This document shows, in pieces, positions 6,542 through 12,291 of a stretch of 64,000 bases of DNA (positions are counted from its first letter, which is position 1; every line of letters starts with the position of its first letter). Source of the stretch: Saccharothrix australiensis (GTDB lineage: Bacteria; Actinomycetota; Actinomycetes; Mycobacteriales; Pseudonocardiaceae). A program made the position numbers and the translations under genes. The DNA is taken from assembly GCF_003634935.1 (NCBI RefSeq), contig NZ_RBXO01000001.1:2443501-2507500 (forward strand), in the 5' to 3' direction. Under the pieces are notes generated by a model. It was not told the DNA's origin. It made no database searches and saw nothing but the letters and a program-made list of their open reading frames with translations.

Positions 6542-7000
6542 CTAGGCGGAGCCGGGGCTGTCCAGCATCGGACATCCGGGGTTGGGCACGTCCACGGCCA
6601 GGGGCGGGCCGACCGGGCTGCGGTAGAGCACGTCGAGCACGAGCGGCGTGGCGCCGAGGTTGCGCCCGAGGTGGACGTAGCCCGGACCGCTCTCCTCCAC
6701 GATCACCTGCCCGGCGTGGTAGACGCCGTCGATCGAGCAGTTCGACTCGTAGTGGTCCAGCACGCCCTGCCGGATGTAGCCGGTGACCTCACCGGGGTGG
6801 TAGTGCCAGCCGGTGCTGCCGCCCGGCGCGATCGTGATCTCCTTCAGCGCGTACCGGGTGTCGCCGACGACCCGGTCGAAGACCGTGACCGCCGTGACGC
6901 CGCGACCGGGCGTCGCGTGCGCGGTGTCGGGCGTCGCGACCAGGGACAGGCCCACGACGACGGCGGCGGCGAGCGCCGGCGGGGAAACCTCGTGCCTCAA
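6542..7000 (-). CDS. Secreted cupin-domain protein
   Basis: 152 residues. An N-terminal signal peptide (LAAAVVVGLSLVATP, cleavage near AHA-TPG at about residue 29) precedes one compact cupin beta-barrel. The metal-binding motif 1 is visible as GWHYHPGEVTGYI with two His and a Glu, and a GHxxxx-type second motif is only weakly matched (PGYVHLGRNLG). Two Cys (near residues 87 and 143) may form a disulfide outside the cell. Stands alone, convergent with the ABC operon. Enzymatic role unknown; single-domain secreted cupins of this kind are common in actinomycetes. Confidence 0.82.
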   Translation of the reverse strand: MRHEVSPPALAAAVVVGLSLVATPDTAHATPGRGVTAVTVFDRVVGDTRYALKEITIAPGGSTGWHYHPGEVTGYIRQGVLDHYESNCSIDGVYHAGQVIVEESGPGYVHLGRNLGATPLVLDVLYRSPVGPPLAVDVPNPGCPMLDSPGSA

Positions 7001-7183: not shown

Positions 7184-8824
7184 TCAGCGGTCCGCGCCGG
7201 GCGCGGCCGTCTCCAGCAGCCGTCCGCCGTCCAGCCGGAGGCCGCGGTCGACGCCGATCGCGGCGAGGAACCGCTCGTCGTGGCTGACGACGACGAACGC
7301 GCCCTGGAAGGCGTTGAGCGCGCTCTCCAACTGCCCGACGCTGACCAGGTCGAGGTTGTTCGTGGGCTCGTCCAGCAGCAGCAACTGCGGCGCGGGCTCC
7401 GCGAACAGGACGCAGGCGAGCGTGGCGCGCAGCCGTTCACCGCCGGACAGCACGCCGACCGGGAGGTGCGCCCGCGCGCCGCGGAACAGGAAGCGCGCGA
7501 GCAGGTTCATCCGCTGCGCGGGCGGCATCGCGGGCGCGAACGCGGCCAGGTTCCCGGCGATCGTGCGGTCGCCGTCCAGGAGGTCCAGGCGCTGCGACAG
7601 GTAGGCGATCCGCCCGTCGGCCCGCCGCACCTCGCCGCGGGTCGGCTCCAGGTCGCCGTGGACGATCCGCAGCAGGGTGGACTTCCCCGCGCCGTTGGGC
7701 CCGGTGAGCGCGATCCGCTCGGGACCCCGGATCACCAGGTCCACGCCGTCGCCCGCGAACAGCTCCCGCCCGCCGTAGCCGGCGCGCAGGCGCTCGCCCG
7801 CGAAGAGCGTCCGGCCCGCGGGCACCGCGGTCTGCGGCAGCTCCAGGCTGATCCGCTGGTCGTCCCGCAGCGCGCGCTCGGCCCGGTCGAGCTTGGCCTT
7901 GGCCGCGCTGACCCGCGCGGCGTGCGTGCCGTCCGCCTTGGCCGCCGACTCCTGCGCGTTGCGCTTCATGTTCCCGGCGAAGATCCTGGGCAGGCCCGCG
8001 TCGCCGAGCGTGCGCGCGGCGTTGCTCGCCCGGCGCGCGGCGCGTTCGCGGGCCTGCTGCATCTCGCGCTTCTCGCGCTTGACCTCCTGCTCGGCGTTGC
8101 GGATGTTCTTCTCGGCGACCTCGCGCGCGGCCTCGACCGCCTTCTCGTACTCGGTGAAGTTCCCGCCGTAGTAGCGGACCTCGCCGCCGTCCAGCTCGGC
8201 GATGCGGTCCACGCGGTCGAGCAGCGCGCGGTCGTGGCTGACCACCAGCAGGCAGCCGGACCAGTCGTCGAGCACGTCGTAGAGCTTGTGGCGCGCTTCG
8301 GCGTCCAGGTTGTTGGTCGGCTCGTCGAGCAGCAGCACGTCCGGGCGCTTGAGCAGCTGCGCCGCCAGGCCGAGGGAGACGGTCTGGCCGCCGCTGAGCG
8401 TGCGCAGGGTGCGGTCGAGGCCGAGGTCGCCGAGGCCGAGCCGGTCCAGCTGGGCGCGGGTCCGCTCCTCGATGTCCCAGTCGTTCCCGATGGTGGTGAA
8501 GTGCTCCTCGGCGACGTCGCCGGACTCGACGGCCGCCAGGGCGCGCAGGACCCCGTCGATTTGGAGGATCTCGGCGACGGTCGGTTCGCCGACCAGTGGC
8601 AGGTCCTGCGGGAGGTAGCCGAGGACGCCCTCGACGGTGACGCTGCCCGCCGACGGGCGCAGCTCGCCCGCGATCAGCTTGAGCAGGGTGGTCTTGCCCG
8701 CGCCGTTGGGCGCGACGAGACCGGTGCGACCACTCGGGACGGTGCAGGACAGGCCGTCGAAGACCGGGGTGTCGTCGGGCCAGGAGAAGGACAGGCCGGA
8801 CACGACGACGCAGGATTCGGACAT
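7184..8824 (-). CDS. ABC-F ATPase (ribosome protection / antibiotic resistance type)
   Basis: 546 residues with two ABC domains and no membrane segment, the hallmark of ABC-F proteins. Domain 1 has Walker A APNGAGKTTL, signature LSGGQTVSLGLA and Walker B VLLLDEPTNNLD; domain 2 has GPNGAGKSTL, LSGGERLRATLA and LLLLDEPTNNLD. Between them is the charged inter-domain linker (about 215-300, rich in RxREMQQARERAARRA) that reaches the peptidyl-transferase centre in antibiotic-resistance ABC-Fs. The ATG at 8824 follows a GAGGT ribosome site; an in-frame extension to 8953 is instead interpreted as leader. Expression is probably controlled by the leader described separately. Confidence 0.93.
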   Translation of the reverse strand: MSESCVVVSGLSFSWPDDTPVFDGLSCTVPSGRTGLVAPNGAGKTTLLKLIAGELRPSAGSVTVEGVLGYLPQDLPLVGEPTVAEILQIDGVLRALAAVESGDVAEEHFTTIGNDWDIEERTRAQLDRLGLGDLGLDRTLRTLSGGQTVSLGLAAQLLKRPDVLLLDEPTNNLDAEARHKLYDVLDDWSGCLLVVSHDRALLDRVDRIAELDGGEVRYYGGNFTEYEKAVEAAREVAEKNIRNAEQEVKREKREMQQARERAARRASNAARTLGDAGLPRIFAGNMKRNAQESAAKADGTHAARVSAAKAKLDRAERALRDDQRISLELPQTAVPAGRTLFAGERLRAGYGGRELFAGDGVDLVIRGPERIALTGPNGAGKSTLLRIVHGDLEPTRGEVRRADGRIAYLSQRLDLLDGDRTIAGNLAAFAPAMPPAQRMNLLARFLFRGARAHLPVGVLSGGERLRATLACVLFAEPAPQLLLLDEPTNNLDLVSVGQLESALNAFQGAFVVVSHDERFLAAIGVDRGLRLDGGRLLETAAPGADR

Positions 8825-9000
8825 GGCGGTGAGACCTCGGATGTGGTGCGGGCAGCACGGTGCCCGATGGGAGAGGTGGACGACGAAGAGGGACCGCCAC
8901 GGCTGAGCCGGGGGCCGCCGACTCCGGGGATCACCCGGAGATGTCGTCTTCACCTGCCACGTCGAGTCTCCTCACGAACGGGTCTCCGGGGTTGAGGGTA
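8825..9000 (-). promoter_or_regulatory. Candidate attenuator leader of the ABC-F gene
   Basis: On the minus strand the leader holds three elements: A = CCCCGGAG (8991-8984), B = CTCCGGG (8940-8934) and C = CCCCGGAG (8929-8922). B can pair with either A or C, but not both. B overlaps the last three codons of a small reading frame. Closer to the ABC-F start, ACCTC (8878-8874) can pair with the GAGGT ribosome site near 8838, with a small GGGCA/TGCCC hairpin between. This is the architecture of antibiotic-responsive attenuation; the pairings are read from sequence, the regulatory role is inferred. Confidence 0.6.
8931..8960 (-). CDS. Nine-codon leader peptide upstream of ABC-F gene
   Basis: The frame GTG GCA GGT GAA GAC GAC followed by ATC TCC GGG and TGA encodes MAGEDDISG. 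A GAGGAG ribosome site (8973-8968) sits 7 bases upstream, an ideal spacing. The last codons and the stop lie inside hairpin element B, so a ribosome stalled here would hide B and change which hairpin forms. Too short for routine gene finding. Role inferred from position and from the known use of short leader peptides in front of erm and ABC-F genes. Confidence 0.5.
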   Translation of the reverse strand: MAGEDDISG

Positions 9001-9092
9001 CCAAAGGCGGTCACGAGTCGTCGGTGGACTCCGGCACCGAAGGCGGTGACAGGTGCGTGGGCGGTGCCCGGAGCGCGCCCCGCTCGGGACGG

Positions 9093-9136
9093 CCCGCCGG
9101 GCCCGCCGTCACCGGGACGACGGCGGGCCCGGCGGG
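9093..9136 (-). terminator. 18-bp perfect hairpin at the 3' end of the M50 gene
   Basis: Left arm 9093-9110 and right arm 9119-9136 are perfectly complementary, with an 8-base loop ACCGGGAC. The stem contains the stop codon of the M50-type gene, so it also encodes its last residues. No T tract; typical of GC-rich actinomycete terminators. Confidence 0.7.
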
Positions 9137-11487
9137 CTCTCGGACGGCGTGGCCGGCACCGTGGTCGTGCTCGGCGCGGGGCTGCCCGGAGAGGGGCCCG
9201 GAGAGGGGCTGCCCGGAGAGGGGCTGCCCGGTGTTGGGCTGTCGGGTGCGGTGCTGCTCGGCGGTGCCGAGGTCGTGCCCGTCGGGGACTCCGACGTGCG
9301 GCCGGGCGACGAGGTCGGCACCGGACCCGACGTCGTCGCCGGAGGTGTCGTCGCGGGAGGCGTCGTCGTACTGCCGCCGGGCAGCGGCACGCCCTCCTCC
9401 CGCAGGACGCCCAGGATCCGGGCCTTGGCGCCCTCCAGCGCCTGCTGGACCTGCTGGACCGTCATGCCGGGCACGTCCCGCGCCAGCCGCGCCAGCTCCG
9501 CCCACACCTCCTCCAACCGCGCCTTCGCCCGCGGGCTCAGGTCCTCGGGCAGGCTGACGACGAGCTGCGCGGCCAGCGCGTAGGTCACGCACCGCACGCA
9601 CGAGTGGTTGACGGCGACGGCGATGTTCTCCGGCACCACCACGTCCGCCTGCCCGACGACGAGCACCACCTGGAACGCCACCGCGACCGTCGTGCAGTCC
9701 CGGCACGACGCCAGCGCGTACGCCTCGTTCCGGTTGTCCACCACGCCGTCGGTCTCCCAGACGAGCGCGAAGGACACCTCGTAGCGCACCGACCCGTCGA
9801 CCGTGTTCACGGCCAGCGCCTGGTTGTCGCCCGGTCCGGGCGGCGCGGGCAGGTCGAGCGGGAACACCAGGGTCGGCTCGCCGGCCGCGCCGTCGGCGGG
9901 CGCGAGGACGAGGGCCAGCACCGGCTTCTCCCTGGTGGGCAGGGGAGTCCCGCTCGGCCACGCCGTCCGGGCGGCCCGCGCCTCGCCGGGAGCGGGCGTC
10001 GCCCGCCCGGAGCCCGCCGCCGCGCCCACCGCACCGGGCACGGCGTCGACCACCGTCCCGCGCTCGTCGGGTCGCACCGGCCGGTACCGGTCGGGCTGCG
10101 GCCACCACGCCCACAGCAGGCCCGCGAGCACGGCGAGCCCGCACACCACGACGAGCGCGCGGCGTCCGGGCCTGCCGCCGGTGGACCGCCAGACCCGCGC
10201 GCAGACCCGCCGCGCCAGCCGGACCAGCAGCAGGCCGACGCCCAGCACGGGCAGCGCGATCGCCGCGACGGAGAGCACCCGCACCAGCACGAGCGCCAGG
10301 TCGCCGTCGCCCAGGGCCGCGCCCGCGGACCGCCACTGCTCGCCGACGCCCTGCCACGCCGTCGCCACGACGCGGGGCAGCGCCAGCACCAGCAGCGCCG
10401 TCCCGGCCAGCAGCAGCGGCACGACGAGGAGGACCCAGGCCGTCACCACGGCCCGCGCCCACGGCTTGAGCACCTTCGACTCCGGCCTGCCCCAGCGGTG
10501 CGGCAGCAGGCCCAGCAGCGTCGGCTTGATGTGCCGGAACAGGTCGGGCACGCCCGTCAGGTCGGCGAGCACGTGGTAGCCGTCGTACCGGACCACCGGC
10601 GCGAGCTGGCGCAGCATCTGCGCGATCTGCGTCGCCACCACCAGCAGCAGCGCGTCCCACCCGGACACCCACCAGGCGACGTGCACCGCGACCGCCACCA
10701 GCGCGTTGAAGTACAGACCGCCCAGGTCGGTGCGCAGCCGGCCGGCCCGCCCGAGCCGGTAGCTGTCGGTGACGTCGGTGTAGAAGGCGGGCCACAGCAG
10801 GTACAGGCCGAACCCCATCGCGCCGGGTGTCGCGCCGCCGTAACGGGCCGCCGCGGCGTGCCCGAACTCGTGGCAGCCCGCCGACACCACCGTCACCGCG
10901 AACACCAGCAGCAGCAGGGCCGGCTGGTGGAACGCCTGGTGGGTGGCGCCCGCGAGCCCTTCGTGGAACAGCACCCAGGTCGCCACCGCGGCGAACGCCA
11001 CCAGCGCCGCGACCACCACCGCGGGGTGGAACAGCCGGGCGAACGGCGCGGTGATCCGCCTGGTCACCGCGGGGTCCGCCACGACGTGGCGCAGGCGCAG
11101 CCCGAGCAGCGGCTCCGCCTTGCGGTGCTCGGGCTCGGTCCCGTCGGGCAGCCGGAGCACGCCCAGTGGCGCGAGCTTGGTCGCCAGCAGCACCCGCACG
11201 TCGTCGGCGGTCACCCGGCGGCCGACGGCCCGGCCCACCGCCGCGGCGATCCCGGCGTGGTCGGCGCGCCCGTCGACGGCCGCCAGCACCCGGTACAGCA
11301 GCGGCGTCAGCTGGAGCACCTGGCCGTCGGCGCGGCGGACCAGCGCGGGCGGGCGGCGGTAGCCGGAGTCGCGCAGCTCGCCGATCAGCTCGACGCCCCG
11401 CGCCCGGTGCGGCACGTCCGACGCCGGGGCGGTGGTCGCGCCACGCCCGGCGGTGCCCTCGCCCGAGGCGTTCACCGGACCGCTCAC
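9109..11487 (-). CDS. Membrane M50-type zinc metalloprotease with PqqD-like N-terminus
   Basis: 792 residues. Residues about 30-125 resemble a PqqD/winged-helix peptide-recognition domain (VELIGELRDSGYRRPPAL, LTPLLYRVLAAVDG). Then come several membrane helices, the zinc motif HEFGH (206-210) in a helix, and the second M50 element VVRYDGYHVLADL. A further set of helices runs to about 470. The C-terminal part is outside the core, has two CxxC pairs (CRDC and CVRC) and ends in a long Pro/Ser/Thr-rich tail. The GTG start overlaps the TGA of the upstream repeat protein by 4 bases (GTGA), so the two are made together. Family members are annotated as putative peptide zinc metalloproteases; the substrate is probably the coupled protein (inference). 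Confidence 0.85.
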   Translation of the reverse strand: MSGPVNASGEGTAGRGATTAPASDVPHRARGVELIGELRDSGYRRPPALVRRADGQVLQLTPLLYRVLAAVDGRADHAGIAAAVGRAVGRRVTADDVRVLLATKLAPLGVLRLPDGTEPEHRKAEPLLGLRLRHVVADPAVTRRITAPFARLFHPAVVVAALVAFAAVATWVLFHEGLAGATHQAFHQPALLLLVFAVTVVSAGCHEFGHAAAARYGGATPGAMGFGLYLLWPAFYTDVTDSYRLGRAGRLRTDLGGLYFNALVAVAVHVAWWVSGWDALLLVVATQIAQMLRQLAPVVRYDGYHVLADLTGVPDLFRHIKPTLLGLLPHRWGRPESKVLKPWARAVVTAWVLLVVPLLLAGTALLVLALPRVVATAWQGVGEQWRSAGAALGDGDLALVLVRVLSVAAIALPVLGVGLLLVRLARRVCARVWRSTGGRPGRRALVVVCGLAVLAGLLWAWWPQPDRYRPVRPDERGTVVDAVPGAVGAAAGSGRATPAPGEARAARTAWPSGTPLPTREKPVLALVLAPADGAAGEPTLVFPLDLPAPPGPGDNQALAVNTVDGSVRYEVSFALVWETDGVVDNRNEAYALASCRDCTTVAVAFQVVLVVGQADVVVPENIAVAVNHSCVRCVTYALAAQLVVSLPEDLSPRAKARLEEVWAELARLARDVPGMTVQQVQQALEGAKARILGVLREEGVPLPGGSTTTPPATTPPATTSGPVPTSSPGRTSESPTGTTSAPPSSTAPDSPTPGSPSPGSPSPGPSPGSPAPSTTTVPATPSESPPGPPSSR

Positions 11488-12134
11488 TGGTCGATGCCCG
11501 ACCTCTGCTCGGCGTTCGCCTCGGCGGTGCCGTCGATGGTCTGCTGGATGATGGCGTCCTGCTGCGCGACCGCCGTCGCGGCCGAGCCGTCCGAGCCGAT
11601 GTTCGCGGCCACGGCGGCGTCGATCGGCGCGGCGACGTTGGCGTTGGCGGCCACCGCCCCGTTGATCGGCGCGGCGAGGTCGAGGTCGGCGGCGAGGTCC
11701 ACGTCGACGTTGAGCAGGCCGCCCTCCAGCGCGGCGGCGGGGTCGGTGGGGTCGACGGGCGCCGACCGCACGGCGTCGGCCTGACCGCCGGCGGGCGGCG
11801 TCGCCGGCCGCTCGCCCTGGTCGATGGCGCTGTCCTGGCTGGAGTTGGCGACGGCCTCGCCGGTGATGCCCTGCTGGATCGCGGCGCCCTGGTCCGCCAG
11901 GGCCTGGGCGGTGGACCCGTCGGACAGCACGTTCGCGCCGACGGCGGCGTCGATCGGGGCCGCGACGTTGGCGTTGGCGGCCACCGCGAGGTCGATCGGC
12001 GCGGCGAGGTCGAGGCCGAGGTCCAGGTCGACGTTCAGGTCGAGCAGCGAGTACACCTCCTTGTCCGGCAGCGCCGTTCCGCCCTCGGCGGCCAGGTCGT
12101 CGGCGGACAGCGGTGGCAGGTTCGCGTCGCTCAT
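11484..12134 (-). CDS. Two-repeat Ala/Asp-rich protein coupled to M50 protease
   Basis: 216 residues, no Cys, no classical signal peptide. It has a short leader-like N-terminus (MSDANLPPLSADDLAAEGG) and two long direct repeats, about residues 31-106 and 140-216. Each repeat runs through LNVDLDL-like, AVAANANVAAPIDAAV and a Q/D-rich end finishing in IDQ, separated by a Pro/Gly linker. The internal GG at 18-19 is reminiscent of a leader cleavage site. Its stop overlaps the start of the M50 gene. Related proteins are sometimes labelled peptidoglycan-binding, but I see no such domain. Best reading: substrate or partner of the M50 protease. Confidence 0.8.
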   Translation of the reverse strand: MSDANLPPLSADDLAAEGGTALPDKEVYSLLDLNVDLDLGLDLAAPIDLAVAANANVAAPIDAAVGANVLSDGSTAQALADQGAAIQQGITGEAVANSSQDSAIDQGERPATPPAGGQADAVRSAPVDPTDPAAALEGGLLNVDVDLAADLDLAAPINGAVAANANVAAPIDAAVAANIGSDGSAATAVAQQDAIIQQTIDGTAEANAEQRSGIDQ

Positions 12135-12291
12135 CGGTCGCTCCCGTTCGTCTGGTCGGCCGGCCGGTCGCATGGCCGGTGGTGGTCCAGACCACTACCC
12201 GCATCGGCAGCGGTGAAACGGGTCGGGCGGCCCGGTCGCGGTATCGGGCCGGGAAAACCCTCCGGGCGGTGTTCCGTCGCTGGTCCGGATG

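What the first reader, a model, noticed from the sequence alone, without database searches (positions are those of the whole stretch)
8825..9000. ABC-F gene preceded by a nine-codon leader frame inside mutually exclusive hairpins
On the minus strand, CCCCGGAG occurs twice (8991-8984 and 8929-8922), with CTCCGGG (8940-8934) between them able to pair with either. A GAGGAG site at ideal distance starts the frame MAGEDDISG, whose last codons and stop fall in the shared strand. A third pairing (ACCTC with GAGGT) can cover the ribosome site of the resistance gene. This is the layout of an antibiotic-sensing attenuator, in a GC-rich organism and with a peptide unlike known leader peptides that I recall.
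Basis: partly seen in the sequence, partly recalled or inferred. Interest (0 to 1): 0.72.

Follow-up and report, generated by a model that had tools for sequence, protein, structure and literature searches.

The report
Conserved drug-sensing leader before resistance gene

Summary
The leader frame MAGEDDISG (window 8960-8931, minus strand) is real. A short frame of the [D/E]DD[I/V]SG type precedes 148 of 176 distinct ABC-F orthologue upstreams examined and 0 of 59 more distant ABC-F relatives. It corresponds to tiaAL (MVGDDDISG), the uORF of tiaA in Streptomyces coelicolor: PMC12421871 reports that lincosamide, streptogramin A and pleuromutilin drugs stall ribosomes at its start codon and that a translational reporter is drug-inducible. 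So the window holds a new member of a known kind.

The B:C hairpin is conserved, with one clade of compensatory change.

New here: codon choice in the leader is constrained as RNA. In one mycobacterial genus the uORF is reduced, in 26 of 61 distinct upstreams, to M*, MR*, MLSR* and similar forms starting at the predicted 5' end; some keep one leader helix as non-coding RNA. This favours initiation, not the peptide, as what is sensed. How the ABC-F gene is then switched on is unresolved (negative).

The parts
8995..9000 (-). Predicted -10 element TACCCT within TGGTACCCT; implies a transcription start near 8988 (not mapped)
   Evidence: for the position; 40 bases upstream of the leader start, inside the main cluster (-48 to -37) of TAnnnT positions in 157 relatives. 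The window scan found no sigma-70-type promoter at its threshold.
8984..8991 (-).
   Evidence: 10 of 151 relatives with at least 6 of 7 matches, 14.7 expected
8968..8973 (-). Ribosome site GAGGAG of the leader frame
   Evidence: purine-rich site in most relatives by eye
8931..8960 (-). Leader frame (uORF) MAGEDDISG*, tiaAL type
   Evidence: PMC12421871
8943..8948 (-). Helix P1, 5' strand GACGAC (leader codons 5-6)
   Evidence: compensatory evidence mixed
8879..8884 (-). Helix P1, 3' strand GTCGTC
8934..8940 (-). Helix P2, 5' strand CTCCGGG (end of the leader frame)
   Evidence: in one clade codon TCC becomes TCA together with CCCGG becoming CCCTGG (12 of 15 against 1 of 123)
8922..8928 (-). 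Helix P2, 3' strand CCCGGAG
   Evidence: (106 of 116 regions fold better than shuffles by more than 1 sd)
8891..8919 (-). Helix P3 hairpin GGCGGCCCCCGGC / GCCGTGGCGGTCC
   Evidence: pairs with changes on both sides, e.g. AU 21, GC 13, CG 2 of 69; 77 of 116
8877..8974 (-). Whole match of covariance model R1 (leader ribosome site through P1)
   Evidence: 81.3 bits, E 9.9e-16; next best in the window 17.4 bits. The window's sequence is one of the 69 that built the model.
8849..8866 (-). Hairpin P4 CGGGCACCGTGCTGCCCG just upstream of the ABC-F ribosome site
   Evidence: 70 of 113 with z below -1; variable in sequence, absent in some relatives
8834..8838 (-). Ribosome site GAGGT of the ABC-F gene
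7184..8824 (-). ABC-F gene, 546 aa, TiaA-like ribosomal protection protein

Best explanation
This is the leader of a TiaA-type (ARE5) ABC-F gene: a constitutive promoter makes a 5' leader with a short uORF. Drugs that block the first peptide bonds (lincosamide, streptogramin A, pleuromutilin type) hold a ribosome at the uORF start codon; it covers the leader-coding strand of helices P1/P2 and so changes the fold of the leader, and translation of the ABC-F gene rises. Shown in print for S. coelicolor: start-codon stalling and a drug-inducible translational reporter. Shown here: conservation of the uORF, of helices P2 and P3, RNA-level constraint on leader codons, and relatives in which the frame is cut to 1-6 codons. 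Inferred: the drug response of this window's leader, and how the ABC-F start is uncovered.
For: Leader of this type in 148 of 176 orthologue upstreams, 0 of 59 in distant ABC-F relatives. Exact tiaAL peptide MVGDDDISG in 7 orthologues; published start-codon toeprints and reporter. Codon constraint: Gly3 GGT 86 of 96 against 11% usage, Gly9 GGG 93 of 96 against 20%, Glu4 GAA 64 of 68 against 24%. P2 compensatory change in one clade; P3 both-side changes. Shortened uORFs in one genus, 26 of 61, all by definition with a start codon 6-7 bases after TAnnnT; P2-like hairpin after the stop in 9 of 10 M* forms, 2.4 expected; P1 complementarity after the stop in 8 of 9 MR* forms. Element single in the own genome.
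Against: Thermodynamic folding with a ribosome placed at the uORF start does not expose the ABC-F ribosome site (mean unpaired 0.28 free, 0.23 stalled, n 158) nor, in 66 representatives, the start codon (0.460 against 0.443); in the 158 the start codon rose from 0.358 to 0.455, but also to 0.479 with the ribosome at the stop. A tree-aware covariation scan had no significant pair (lowest E 12.9). P1 compensation is mixed: own leader better in 8 of 15 variant leaders, worse in 7. P1 complementarity over all short forms is 10 of 26 against 6.0 expected. No drug data exist for this organism; SCO0636 itself was not fetched.
Confidence: 0.75

Rival explanations
1. The peptide itself is sensed: the acidic GEDD/GDDD stretch or the DDISG end arrests or slows the ribosome, and the ABC-F protein relieves the arrest, giving feedback (as EttA relieves pauses at acidic stretches in E. 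coli).
For: Peptide kept in 148 of 176; codon 4 moves between Glu and Asp, keeping the charge (GAA 69, GAC 59, GAG 19 of 157). EttA and acidic motifs: PMC12421871 section 12; PMC11282234 seen in a listing only.
Against: 26 of 61 distinct upstreams of one genus have M*, MR*, MLSR*, MLSH*, MLGI* or MLGIDA* instead. Codon choice is constrained beyond the amino acid. Published stalling is at the start codon.
Confidence: 0.12
2. Classical attenuation with mutually exclusive A:B and B:C hairpins.
For: Perfect A and C complementarity to B in the window.
Against: A is at chance level in relatives (10 of 151 against 14.7) and straddles the predicted transcription start; ACCTC:GAGGT not conserved.
Confidence: 0.04
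3. Transcription attenuation: the leader controls read-through of a terminator (intrinsic or Rho) rather than translation of the ABC-F gene.
For: PMC12421871 says the tiaA 5'UTR can be folded into terminator and anti-terminator forms (its Fig. S4, not seen).
Against: No intrinsic-terminator-like site in 8700-9150; the same paper found a constitutive transcriptional reporter for tiaA, with a caveat about the strong ribosome site used. Rho could not be tested.
Confidence: 0.15
4. The frame is a chance reading frame in a conserved non-coding RNA element.
For: Nucleotide-level constraint; helices kept where the frame is cut.
Against: tiaAL is translated in vitro (PMC12421871); a start codon is kept even where the frame is reduced to start-stop (that count selects for such starts).
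Confidence: 0.04

Closest known systems
tiaA (SCO0636) leader with uORF tiaAL, Streptomyces coelicolor (PMC12421871, mBio 2025)
   Same: Nine-codon uORF ending DDISG upstream of an ABC-F gene; exact peptide MVGDDDISG in 7 orthologues of this window's gene; leader length of the same order (194 bp 5'UTR reported; about 165 bases here from the predicted start).
   Different: This leader reads MAGEDDISG; no drug data; the terminator/anti-terminator fold that the paper proposes (Fig. S4, not seen) has no terminator-like site here.
Other ABC-F attenuators named in PMC12421871 (lmrC, vgaA, msrD, vmlR, vgaL, are5sc)
   Same: uORF in the 5' leader senses ribosome-targeting drugs and controls an ABC-F gene.
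   Different: Those are described there as transcription attenuation; the are5sc uORFs encode MLV and MRS, not DDISG.
whiB7/wblC uORF leader of actinobacteria
   Same: Actinobacterial uORF leader answering translation inhibitors (as cited in PMC12421871).
   Different: Controls a transcription activator; not compared by sequence here.

Membership tests
tiaA-type ABC-F leader | Short uORF ending in DDISG directly upstream of an ABC-F gene | tested here: met
   MAGEDDISG; 148 of 176 orthologue upstreams canonical
tiaA-type ABC-F leader | Downstream gene orthologous to SCO0636 | tested here: inconclusive
   SCO0636 was not fetched. Orthologues with exactly MVGDDDISG (7) and a named Streptomyces orthologue at 73% identity with a GDDDISG uORF (L046) support it.
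tiaA-type ABC-F leader | Drug-dependent stalling at the uORF start codon | not testable with these tools
   Published for tiaAL only
tiaA-type ABC-F leader | Induction at the translational level | not testable with these tools
   Published for tiaA; folding calculations here do not show exposure of the ABC-F start
Intrinsic-terminator attenuator | Intrinsic terminator in the leader | tested here: not met
   none found in 8700-9150 (0.1 expected)
Classical translation attenuator with exclusive hairpins A:B / B:C | Conserved complementarity of A to B | tested here: not met
   10 of 151 against 14.7 expected
Classical translation attenuator with exclusive hairpins A:B / B:C | Conserved B:C hairpin | tested here: met
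   99 of 151; compensatory change in one clade (12 of 15)
Rfam RNA family | Match at the gathering score | tested here: not met
   no match anywhere in the window

The most novel reading that the evidence does not exclude
The tiaAL-type leader is a pure initiation sensor: what counts is a start codon at which drugs can park a ribosome over an RNA fold, not the conserved peptide. In one mycobacterial genus it has been reduced several ways to a start-stop frame (AUG UGA) at the very 5' end of the mRNA, with P2 or P1 kept as non-coding RNA. That would be a drug-sensing leader with the smallest possible uORF.
Probability: 0.45. Interest if true: 0.62.

Novelty: new member of a known kind. Interest (0 to 1): 0.42.

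Why it matters
It places the window's gene in a drug-inducible resistance circuit that is spread over many actinobacterial genera, and replaces the drawn switch by helices that have comparative support. The natural series from nine codons down to start-stop makes a direct test possible of whether such leaders read the nascent peptide or only the arrest at initiation.

Tried and rejected
Rejected: strand A and the A/B/C switch; the ACCTC:GAGGT lock (below expectation); pairing of the leader start with the ABC-F start, seen in the window's own minimum-energy fold but not in general (probability 0.188 against 0.167 with shuffled upstream letters, Wilcoxon p 0.27, 66 representatives; no covariation in the window-pair scan); exposure of the ABC-F ribosome site by a parked ribosome. 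Led nowhere: a tree-aware covariation scan on 149 sequences (lowest E 12.9). Weak: helix P1 by compensation (8 of 15 for, 7 against). Rfam: no match. Rows dropped: the pair count used 69 of 74 representatives (L037, L038, L040, L145, L233 left out by me as divergent); identical upstreams were dropped; 3 mycobacterial loci (L324, L325, L327) were not fitted; at least five places listed (G170, G164, G096, G034, G006) were not fetched, and that list was itself capped.

Full report
Observation. The gene is an ABC-F protein of 546 aa, 8824-7184, above the NCBIfam cut-off for ribosomal protection-like ABC-F (381.7 against 380 bits). The best solved relatives by sequence are YheS, the lincosamide-streptogramin A protein of 7nhl and EttA. 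The family of the host is inferred: genomes of the 'same family' carry upstreams identical to named Amycolatopsis and Lentzea records (duplicates L031 and L118); that this makes it Pseudonocardiaceae is recalled.

Is the leader real? I collected upstream regions of orthologues from 297 genomes of the family and 394 of the class, fetching most but not all listed places. Of 176 distinct upstreams, 148 carry a short frame of the type [D/E]DD[I/V]SG or a close variant; MAGEDDISG itself occurs 37 times and MVGDDDISG 7 times. Some of the 28 others are near misses by eye (for example L195, L198, L210), 9 are mycobacterial short forms of the kind described below, and some have no leader in view. Among 59 ABC-F relatives of at most 54% identity none has such a frame. 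The search used a pattern chosen after seeing the motif.

Known already. PMC12421871 (mBio 2025; sections 7 and 12 and passages seen; supplement not seen) describes tiaA (SCO0636) with uORF tiaAL = MVGDDDISG. Toeprints with S. [quoted passage not shown] The translational reporter was drug-inducible and the transcriptional one constitutive. A full-text search for DDISG found this as the one relevant paper among 14. So the mechanism class is in print; the window is a new member.

RNA anatomy. An alignment gives one consensus architecture: P1 (leader GACGAC with downstream GTCGTC) enclosing P2 (TCCGGG around the leader stop with CCCGGA) and hairpin P3, then hairpin P4 before the ABC-F ribosome site. 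P2: at least 6 of 7 complementary in 99 of 151; in one clade the Ser codon is TCA and the partner is CCCTGG in 12 of 15, against 1 of 123 leaders with TCC. These 12 are mostly one lineage, so few events. P3: in 69 sequences several pairs change on both sides (67-112: AU 21, GC 13, CG 2, GU 12, unpaired 17). For the whole structure, cells with both-side changes are 35 against 12.9 in shuffles (0 of 500), covariation score 0.129 against 0.108 (0 of 500), but pairs with such change are 8 against 7.1 (207 of 500), and a one-column slide has 36 such cells with a lower score of 0.071. Folding of the P2, P3 and P4 regions is better than shuffles (mean z -2.05, -1.69, -1.26). P1 has no both-side change in that alignment, and the energy test on leaders that vary at codon 5 splits 8 to 7. 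A tree-aware scan over all column pairs found nothing significant (lowest E 12.9).

Strand A is at chance level in relatives (10 of 151 with at least 6 of 7 matches; 14.7 expected; perfect only in the window). The window's TACCCT is 40 bases before the leader start, where TAnnnT clusters in relatives, so transcription probably starts near 8988, inside strand A; the promoter scan at its threshold found nothing. The ACCTC:GAGGT type of pairing is rarer than chance (44 of 127, 68.8 expected). No terminator-like site was found.

Peptide or RNA? In 96 leaders of the M-x-G-[ED]-D-D-I-S-G form, Gly3 is GGT in 86 (usage in 30 ABC-F genes 11%), Gly9 GGG in 93 (20%), Glu4 GAA in 64 of 68 (24%). These species are related, so the p-values in that call overstate. 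The bias shows constraint on the RNA itself; P2 explains Gly9 and Ser8, while the cause at Gly3 and Glu4 is not found.

Shortened uORFs. Of 61 distinct upstreams classified (12 from earlier calls, 3 further loci not fitted), 20 have a long frame without a TAnnnT at 6-7 bases, 12 a long frame whose start lies 6-7 bases after TAnnnT, 26 a short frame so placed (10 M*, 9 MR*, 5 MLSR* or MLSH*, 1 MLGI*, 1 MLGIDA*), and 3 neither. The 6-7 base placement was the selection rule, so it is no independent proof of leaderless starts. In the M* forms a second start, GTG AGT TGA (MS*), overlaps in most. After the stop, a hairpin of at least 5 pairs follows in 9 of 10 M* forms (2.4 expected), with changed but complementary stems such as GCCGGG/CCCGGC; P1-type complementarity is kept in 8 of 9 MR* forms but in 1 of 10 M* forms and in 10 of 26 over all (6.0 expected). 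In these forms the GACGAC and TCCGGG stretches are no longer translated as DD and SG. The simplest reading is that the start codon and the fold are what selection keeps. I saw no description of these short forms in the listings of two searches; those papers were not read for it.

Mechanism. Most likely: a drug parks a ribosome at the uORF start; its footprint overlaps the 5' strand of P1 and the leader ribosome site, and the fold changes. What uncovers the ABC-F start is not shown: placing a ribosome at the uORF start in folding calculations lowers, if anything, the mean accessibility of its ribosome site (0.280 to 0.229, n 158) and leaves the start codon unchanged in 66 representatives (0.460 to 0.443; 0.358 to 0.455 in the 158). 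The published reporters favour translation control.

Specificity. Model R1 finds one match in the own genome and one place in the window. In 396 genomes of the phylum 18 have a match at E 0.01; 6 of these (including the own genome) lie beside the ABC-F gene by coordinates, one (G484, E 0.009) does not, and the neighbours of the other 11 weak matches (E 3e-4 to 0.008) were not examined. Strict filters may have lost members: the model misses most short forms.

Verdict. Observation confirmed; interpretation partly supported; new member of a known kind, with a testable twist on what the uORF senses.

Noticed in passing
window 9109-11349 (-): The next gene upstream weakly matches daptide/epipeptide-type intramembrane HExxH metalloproteases (NF041824, 97.6 bits, cut-off 300), no Pfam match, and ends in a Pro/Ser-rich repetitive tail.
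   Followed up: partly
window 11484-12173 (-): Frame of 229 aa with two similar repeats rich in Leu, Asp and Ala (VDLDLGLDLAAPIDLAVAANANVAAPIDAAVGAN...), no NCBIfam or Pfam match.
   Followed up: partly
window 6542-7000 (-): Small cupin-domain protein (PF07883) directly downstream of the ABC-F gene; not tested whether it is in the same transcript.
   Followed up: no
L197, L208, L209, L248, L257: Five relatives have an ABC-F gene with a TAACCGGTTGGTG-type sequence close upstream and no leader frame in view: the gene itself may be leaderless there.
   Followed up: no
L238, L250: A short frame MLGDD* (GTG CTT GGT GAC GAC TGA) lies further upstream, seen by eye; it is missing from the canonical tally.
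   Followed up: no
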